Positions 19,064-19,648 of a DNA stretch of 55,605 nt are shown here, piece after piece; position 1 is the stretch's first letter; each line of letters opens with the position of its first letter. The notes below the pieces were generated by a model, which was given only the letters and a program-made list of their open reading frames with translations, made no database searches and was not told where the DNA came from. Location of the stretch: positions 1 to 55,605 of the forward strand of contig DASUYB010000158.1 of assembly GCA_036377595.1 (NCBI GenBank). The letters are read 5' to 3'. This DNA comes from Longimicrobium sp. GTDB lineage: Bacteria > Gemmatimonadota > Gemmatimonadetes > Longimicrobiales > Longimicrobiaceae. The position numbers were made by a program, and so were the translations under genes.

Positions 19064-19248
19064 TGTCATTCCGAAGGCGCCGCCGGCCGGAACCTGCGTC
19101 CGTACCGTCGCCTTGCGGCGCCTGAGGAATCTGTGGCCAGCGTCCGCACCGACGGCCGAACATCGGCGCGTAACTCTGGCCACAGATCCCTCGGCCGCCC
19201 GAATTCGGCCCGTACGCGTGTCCGGTGCAGCGGCCTCGGGATGACAGG
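19064..19248. repeat. Long nested palindrome, GTCATTCCGAAGGCGC family
   Basis: The outer arms are TGTCATTCCGAAGGCGCCGC at the left and GCGGCCTCGGGATGACA at the right. The inner arms are GAGGAATCTGTGGCCAG (about 19125-19141) and CTGGCCACAGATCCCTC. Together they form a cruciform-like element of about 185 bases. A second copy with the same plan is at 52823-53004 and a related one at 23641-23832. There is no ORF and no transposase. It fills the gap before the promoter of the cysteine-rich peptide. Confidence 0.8.
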
Positions 19249-19335: not shown

Positions 19336-19384
19336 CGATTCCGTTCTGCGAGACGTGTCCTTCCATCCGAGAGAGGGGGCTCGC

Positions 19385-19594
19385 ATGCGAGAGAAAGCGA
19401 TGCGCATGGTACTGGGCGCCATCATCGCGGCGGCGCTGGCCTTCGGTGCGCGCGAGGCGTTCGCCTCCGTGCCGCAGGGCGCCACCGCCGGCCCCGGGTG
19501 CAACGAGCAGACGTGCGACTACTACTGCATCACCCACGGCGCCAACTACGGCTTCTGCCTCAACGGCCAGTGCGTCTGCCGCAGCGGGCCGTAA
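19385..19594 (+). CDS. Secreted six-cysteine defensin-like peptide, 69 aa
   Basis: A 69-residue precursor. Residues 1-27 form a Sec signal peptide (positively charged start, MVLGAIIAAALAFG core, cleavage after AFA). The predicted mature part of 42 residues has cysteines at 39, 44, 48, 58, 63 and 65, spacing C-x4-C-x3-C-x9-C-x4-C-x-C. This is the CS-alpha-beta pattern of insect/fungal defensins. It also has a His and a Gly after the CxxxC and a Gly-Phe-Cys before the CxC, which defensins often share. Bacterial defensin-like peptides are known mainly from myxobacteria, as I recall. ATG 19385 has GAGAGGGGG upstream. A strong hairpin follows. An antimicrobial role is inference. Confidence 0.8.
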   Translation: MREKAMRMVLGAIIAAALAFGAREAFASVPQGATAGPGCNEQTCDYYCITHGANYGFCLNGQCVCRSGP

Positions 19595-19619: not shown

Positions 19620-19648
19620 GAGCCCCGCCGGATGGTCCGGCGGGGCTC
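19620..19648. terminator. Hairpin terminator between convergent genes
   Basis: GAGCCCCGCCGGA (19620-19632) pairs perfectly with TCCGGCGGGGCTC (19636-19648) around a 3-base loop. AAAA at 19616-19619 lies to the left, so on the minus strand the stem is followed by CC then TTTT. It stands between the defensin-like gene and the convergent PRC-barrel gene and can serve both. Confidence 0.75.

What the first reader, a model, noticed from the sequence alone, without database searches (positions are those of the whole stretch)
19385..19594. Bacterial peptide with the cysteine pattern of insect/fungal defensins
The sequence shows a 69-residue precursor with a Sec signal peptide and six Cys spaced C-x4-C-x3-C-x9-C-x4-C-x-C. 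This is the CS-alpha-beta layout, with a Gly-Phe-Cys before the CxC. It has its own promoter-like pair and is bracketed by repeats and a strong hairpin. Defensin-like peptides are known in few bacteria (myxobacteria, from memory); a Gemmatimonadota example may be new. An antimicrobial or competition role is inference.
Basis: partly seen in the sequence, partly recalled or inferred. Interest (0 to 1): 0.85.

Follow-up and report, generated by a model that had tools for sequence, protein, structure and literature searches.

The report
Bacterial defensin-like peptide from large family
A soil-type bacterium carries a small secreted peptide predicted to fold like insect and scorpion defensins, and it turns out to be one of at least 23 fast-diverging sister genes in that genome, among the largest such bacterial repertoires I found, although what the peptides do is untested.

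Summary
Window 19385-19594 encodes a 69-residue precursor: Sec signal peptide, then C-x4-C-x3-C-x9-C-x4-C-x-C with a GxC. AlphaFold2 predicts one helix and two strands (core pLDDT about 92 with family alignment, 80-86 from the single sequence), and the best PDB matches are CS-alpha-beta peptides (nasonin-1, BmBKTx1). Among 43 aligned typical members all six Cys are invariant; the wider set includes variants. Signal peptide and mature domain are both homologous to peptides in 36 of 195 Myxococcota genomes, which I take to be the published class I/II bacterial defensins. So this is a new, strongly expanded lineage of a known kind. The antimicrobial reading is unproven: net charge is near zero (family mean -0.3), lipid II-binding motifs are absent, no immunity or export genes adjoin, and a published myxobacterial peptide (xanthusin-1) was inactive. 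Most likely these are secreted, target-binding antagonism peptides diversifying after duplication. The promoter claim is not supported; the hairpin and upstream multicopy repeat are real. Taxon names could not be checked.

The parts
19385..19594 (+). Gene for the 69-aa defensin-like precursor (ATG to TAA)
   Evidence: family profile E 7.7e-22, the only family member found in the window
19385..19465 (+). Predicted Sec signal peptide (residues 1-27, SPase I-type AFA|S site) with the family LxFGxxxA motif
   Evidence: sequence; F20 and G21 invariant and L18, A25, A27 at least 90% in alignment A2; site assigned by eye, no signal-peptide program available
19466..19591 (+). Predicted mature peptide, 42 aa, net charge -1
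19499..19579 (+). Six-cysteine core C39-C44-C48-C58-C63-C65 (C-x4-C-x3-C-x9-C-x4-C-x-C) with GxC at G56-F57-C58
   Evidence: six Cys invariant, Gly at least 90% in 43 members
19505..19534 (+). Predicted alpha-helix (residues 41-50)
   Evidence: core pLDDT about 92; single sequence agrees
19547..19561 (+). Predicted beta-strand 1 (residues 55-59)
19568..19582 (+). Predicted beta-strand 2 (residues 62-66)
19370..19379 (+). Shine-Dalgarno-like purine run AGAGAGGGGG before the ATG
19620..19648 (.). Perfect 13-bp hairpin, probably a terminator shared by the peptide gene and the convergent PRC-barrel-like gene
19064..19246 (.). Multicopy palindromic intergenic repeat; context, not part of the gene

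Best explanation
The gene encodes a Sec-exported peptide with the three-disulfide CS-alpha-beta fold. It belongs to a large, diversifying family homologous to peptides of myxobacteria that I take to be their published class I/II defensins. Shown by computation: the gene, the family, conserved Cys framework and export signal, predicted fold, homology to the myxobacterial set, tandem duplication, and excess mature-domain change between young duplicates. Inferred: after SPase I cleavage the peptide is oxidised in the periplasm (a VKOR gene is present), leaves the cell by an unknown route across the outer membrane if the producer is diderm, and binds a specific outside target in competing or attacking microbes. 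Each paralogue would present a different loop surface on one scaffold, so the repertoire covers several targets. No immunity gene is needed if the target is absent or shielded in the producer. My estimate is about 0.95 for the fold, 0.95 for the family, and about 0.45 for antagonism as the function.
For: Fold: AF2 H-E-E with core pLDDT about 92, same from single sequence; Foldseek hits are CS-alpha-beta peptides (nasonin-1; 1r1g rmsd 0.4, TMt 0.90), VIA Z 5.6. Beyond Cys spacing: the real profile matches solved CS-alpha-beta peptides at 1.4e-6, while the same alignment with non-Cys residues shuffled reaches only 0.004. Homology to myxobacteria: 36/195 genomes, profile-profile E 1.3e-20 full length and 7.7e-13 mature, against 1.3e-6 for the shuffled control; a Corallococcus member passes the Pfam Arthropod defensin cut-off. 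Expansion: 23 genes here, 28 in G006, arrays of 5-9. Diversification: mature/signal dN ratio 1.8-3.8 in five tandem pairs against 0.7-2.0 in nine between-species pairs, p = 0.004. Turnover: the syntenic SDR-PRC locus in G003 lacks the gene. Disulfide capacity: VKOR E 3.1e-30.
Against: Function is untested. Mature charge is near zero or negative (mean -0.3; 7 of 57 at +2 or more), whereas 80% of the bacterial defensins surveyed in PMC8819291 are positive. The GXGCP and helix His motifs of lipid II binders (PMC12284004) are absent. No immunity, protease or ABC-transporter gene recurs beside the genes examined. Xanthusin-1, a class II myxobacterial defensin, showed no antimicrobial activity (PMC11561630). 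The fast divergence could be relaxed constraint plus gene conversion of the signal region; dS in GC-rich genes is rough. Three congeners (G002, G007, G009) show no detectable member.
Confidence: 0.5

Rival explanations
1. The peptides are secreted inhibitors or neutralisers, for example of proteases, lytic enzymes or toxins of competitors and predators, rather than killers.
For: CS-alpha-beta peptides include enzyme inhibitors (introduction of PMC11561630). Neutral to acidic charge and absence of recurrent immunity genes suit a non-lethal binder; diversification suits an arms race.
Against: No inhibitor motif was tested or identified; no target is known.
Confidence: 0.22
2. The peptides are extracellular signals or kin-recognition tags.
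For: Many small secreted variable peptides with lineage-specific presence; xanthusin-1 is expressed in monoculture and not induced by a competitor (PMC11561630).
Against: No conserved neighbouring receptor or regulator was seen at the loci examined; a disulfide-rich scaffold is an unusual choice for a bacterial signal (general knowledge).
Confidence: 0.15
3. The peptides stay in the periplasm or envelope, for example as redox or metal-binding proteins; the loops drift under weak constraint.
For: Homologues in the distant genome G324 sit next to AhpC/TSA redoxin genes; no dedicated export genes were found.
Against: Redoxin linkage was not seen at the loci examined in this genome and its congeners; the Cys framework fits a structural CS-alpha-beta core.
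Confidence: 0.12
4. The Cys pattern is chance or convergent and the peptide is unrelated to other bacterial defensins.
For: Short Cys-rich proteins easily reach weak scores; a Cys-only shuffled profile still reaches E 0.004 in the PDB.
Against: Signal peptide and mature domain are both shared with myxobacterial peptides; the real profile is far stronger than the shuffled control. Convergence with eukaryotic defensins is not excluded.
Confidence: 0.03

Closest known systems
Myxobacterial class I/II bacterial defensins (corallosins, xanthusins; PMC11561630)
   Same: Sec signal peptide, CS-alpha-beta Cys framework with CxxxC, CxC and GxC, short C1-C2 loop; the Corallococcus/Myxococcota relatives found here also share the FG motif at the end of the signal peptide. 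Some carry KCxN, the motif that paper reports in class I.
   Different: Up to 28 copies per genome and arrays of 5-9 genes, against 1-4 in Myxococcota at the thresholds used. A separate radiation in the tree, 99/99. Identity of my hits with the paper's peptides was not checked letter for letter, because its sequences are in figures and supplements not held.
Actifensin / actinodefensins (NF038042; PMC6989792, PMC8819291, PMC12284004)
   Same: Bacterial six-Cys CS-alpha-beta peptide, several copies per genome (up to 7 in one operon).
   Different: Actifensins lack a classical signal peptide, sit with ABC transporter genes, carry GXGCP and bind lipid II. The present peptide has a Sec signal, no such operon and no such motif; nine relatives but not this peptide give weak NF038042 hits.
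Nasonin-1 and short-loop alpha-KTx type peptides (PDB 2koz, 1r1g)
   Same: Closest solved structures by sequence and fold; nasonin-1M aligns ungapped over the six-Cys core.
   Different: Eukaryotic origin; no evidence of channel or antimicrobial activity here.
Plant and insect defensin multigene families
   Same: Large diversifying sets of secreted Cys-rich peptides with conserved signal and variable mature parts (general knowledge).
   Different: Bacterial genes, partly in operon-like arrays.

Membership tests
CS-alpha-beta (cis-defensin) superfamily | CxxxC plus CxC framework with six Cys | tested here: met
CS-alpha-beta (cis-defensin) superfamily | GxC gamma-core signature | tested here: met
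   GFC in this peptide; 50 of 57 family members
CS-alpha-beta (cis-defensin) superfamily | One helix packed on a two- or three-strand sheet | tested here: met
   predicted only:
CS-alpha-beta (cis-defensin) superfamily | Disulfides C1-C4, C2-C5, C3-C6 | not testable with these tools
   implied by superposition on 1r1g but not measured
CS-alpha-beta (cis-defensin) superfamily | Match to a Pfam defensin model above curated cut-off (annotation criterion, not a structural one) | tested here: not met
   This peptide: Defensin PF24552 11.6 bits, 27 needed; a Corallococcus relative passes Defensin_2
Myxobacterial class I/II bacterial defensins | Homologous precursor with Sec signal peptide | tested here: met
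   hhalign E 1.3e-20 to the Myxococcota homologue set
Myxobacterial class I/II bacterial defensins | Class I N-terminal tail of 1-4 residues | tested here: not met
   tail of 11 residues if cut at A27|S28; definition from PMC11561630
Myxobacterial class I/II bacterial defensins | Class II N-terminal tail of 9-13 residues | tested here: inconclusive
   11 residues by predicted cleavage, but cleavage unverified and class II so far reported only from Cystobacterineae (PMC11561630)
Actifensin / actinodefensin | GXGCP N-terminal motif with aromatic X, and His before C3 | tested here: not met
   GPGCN here; Tyr before C3; definition from PMC12284004
Actifensin / actinodefensin | Adjacent ABC transporter / afn operon | tested here: not met
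   neighbours are SDR and PRC-barrel-like genes
Actifensin / actinodefensin | NCBIfam NF038042 match | tested here: not met
   no match for this peptide; nine relatives weak, best 2.7e-4
Cationic antimicrobial defensin | Net positive mature peptide | tested here: not met
   -1 for this peptide; family mean -0.3
Cationic antimicrobial defensin | Antimicrobial activity | not testable with these tools
   needs purified peptide

The most novel reading that the evidence does not exclude
Some bacteria keep a venom- or immune-like arsenal: dozens of paralogous CS-alpha-beta peptides on one secretion signal, duplicated in arrays and diversified under selection for different targets, as plants and arthropods do.
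Probability: 0.35. Interest if true: 0.8.

Novelty: new variant of a known kind. Interest (0 to 1): 0.64.

Why it matters
Bacterial defensins have been treated as scattered single genes or small actinomycete operons (up to 7 copies, PMC6989792; 74 sequences in three phyla, PMC11561630). A lineage with more than 20 per genome gives a deep natural alignment of the bacterial branch of the fold, a way to test whether bacterial defensins diversify like eukaryotic ones, and many unexplored, mostly non-cationic scaffolds. It also makes the question whether eukaryotic defensins derive from bacteria easier to address, because a second bacterial radiation homologous to the myxobacterial one is now in hand.

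Tried and rejected
EGF (teneurin) as identity: Pfam hit 7e-4 to one profile but far below cut-off and not the fold predicted. Mobile-element origin: no tblastn match in plasmids or phages. Common promoter motif: an EM search found only a weak subset motif (GCGTGAATcGTGCGGC-like before four genes), and sigma-70 scores equal shuffles. Conserved partner gene: none; neighbours of the dispersed copies differ, and the main array has FKBP and NYN genes beside it (clearest in G000 and G006). Recent transfer from myxobacteria: the tree separates the two groups 99/99, so not recent; few columns, root unknown. Actinomycetota sample: no match in 346 genomes; Pseudomonadota: 1 marginal, partial match in 349; Acidobacteriota: 1 in 247. 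These searches score only the best candidates per genome, so absences are weak, and the Actinomycetota run had no positive control. A profile alignment was too variable for the search for related loci.

Full report
Observation. The 210-bp ORF at 19385-19594 is as described. The precursor is MREKAMRMVLGAIIAAALAFGAREAFA|SVPQGATAGPGCNEQTCDYYCITHGANYGFCLNGQCVCRSGP. Third-position GC is 0.94 and a purine run precedes the ATG. In-frame ATGs at residues 6 and 8 leave the exact start slightly open. The promoter claim fails. The hairpin (13 perfect pairs, z -5.2) and the upstream repeat (dozens of copies in the genome) are real but generic.

Family. A whole-genome search with this one protein returned about 20 other loci. 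Fetching them and iterating a profile gave 23 precursors in this genome and 57 in four congeneric genomes, this one included. Nearly all have a basic start, a hydrophobic stretch ending in LxFGxxxA, a variable linker and a Cys-rich end. For 43 members with the standard framework the six Cys are invariant and the Gly of GxC is at least 90%; these were selected for that framework, and other members show longer C1-C2 loops, 8 Cys, or CC/CCxC ends. With the profile, 11 of 21 genomes of the family-rank group have matches: 21 here at the stricter cut-off, 28 in G006, 13 in G003, 9 in G001, none in ten others (one of the 11, G015, is a signal-peptide-only match in a large protein). In a 395-genome sample of the phylum most hits are in that same family-rank group, with a few outliers; only the top 15 candidates per genome were scored, so this undercounts.

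Arrays. G000 C103 holds 5 genes in a row, G003 C83 at least 5, and G006 C30 9 before the contig ends, spaced 37-93 bp in G006, so probably co-transcribed. An FKBP and an NYN-domain gene lie beside the array in G000 and G006, and the NYN gene also in G003, so the array is ancestral while its content turns over. The window gene is a dispersed copy. In G003 the same SDR and PRC-barrel-like flanks (88% and 85% protein identity) enclose lineage-specific repeats and no peptide gene, so the gene was gained here or lost there.

Fold. AlphaFold2 with the 43-row alignment gives H12-21, E26-30, E33-37 of the 40-residue stretch, core pLDDT about 92. The single sequence alone gives the same elements at pLDDT 80-86, so the alignment did not impose it. 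The best Foldseek matches are CS-alpha-beta peptides; VIA Z 5.6 for 1r1g is modest in absolute terms, as expected for 31 residues. The sequence profile finds the same set at E 1.4e-6. A control in which every non-Cys residue was shuffled within each sequence reaches only 0.004, so some resemblance lies outside the cysteines. That does not prove common descent with eukaryotic defensins.

Relatives. Among 195 Myxococcota genomes 36 have 1-4 homologues, including Corallococcus terminator, C. praedator and C. exercitus. Both halves of the precursor align, e.g. C. terminator MTLSVKKAGRALFAMVTGAALSFGATMAFSTPAEASQVECNPVECNQSCQSKGFRLGKCVKAACTCF. Profile-profile E is 1.3e-20 full length and 7.7e-13 for mature parts, against 1.3e-6 for the shuffled control. 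One Corallococcus peptide passes the Pfam Arthropod defensin cut-off. By genus, short C1-C2 loop and KCxN motif these are very probably the class I/II defensins of PMC11561630, but I could not compare letters. The tree puts the two sets on opposite sides of a 99/99 branch.

Evolution. In five tandem duplicate pairs the mature part has 1.8-3.8 times the dN of the signal part; in nine between-species pairs 0.7-2.0 (Mann-Whitney p = 0.004). Pairs are few, were picked by me from the closest matches and the tree, and gene conversion of the signal region is an alternative. The reading is diversification after duplication, then retention.

Function. Mature charge averages -0.3; only 7 of 57 are +2 or more. 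The GXGCP and His features of lipid II-binding defensins (PMC12284004) are absent here, and no export or immunity gene recurs beside the family genes. [quoted passage not shown] A VKOR gene suggests that the genome can form exported disulfides. My commitment is a secreted, target-binding antagonism peptide at about 0.45, with inhibitor, signal and envelope roles as rivals.

Limits.

Noticed in passing
L018:2295-2489 (-), L020:1691-1945 (-), L023:1786-2091 (-), L015 around 651 (+): Short peptides with an LxVESF-type leader lie next to several family members; they resemble pinensin-type lanthipeptide leaders (from memory) but the scanned ones gave no NCBIfam hit (the L015 frame was not checked).
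   Followed up: partly
window 19064-19246: About 180-bp palindromic intergenic repeat present at dozens of places in this genome.
   Followed up: partly
L263 (G003:C44), SDR-PRC intergenic region: The syntenic spacer of a congener carries tandem repeats of roughly 300 bp in place of the peptide gene and the palindromic repeat.
   Followed up: partly
L277:4556-9749 (G324): Distant homologues in a single-contig genome occur as a duplicated three-gene unit: AhpC/TSA redoxin, Cys-rich peptide, DUF4876 protein.
   Followed up: partly
L219, L223 (Acidobacteria MAG): The same Cys framework appears inside larger proteins with Asp-rich stretches that look like lipoproteins.
   Followed up: no
L010, L044: 8-Cys variants with an extra CxxxC...CDC segment before the standard core.
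   Followed up: no
L015, L045, L051, L058 upstream regions: Shared GCGTGAATcGTGCGGC-like element about 38-51 nt before the start codon in four family genes.
   Followed up: partly
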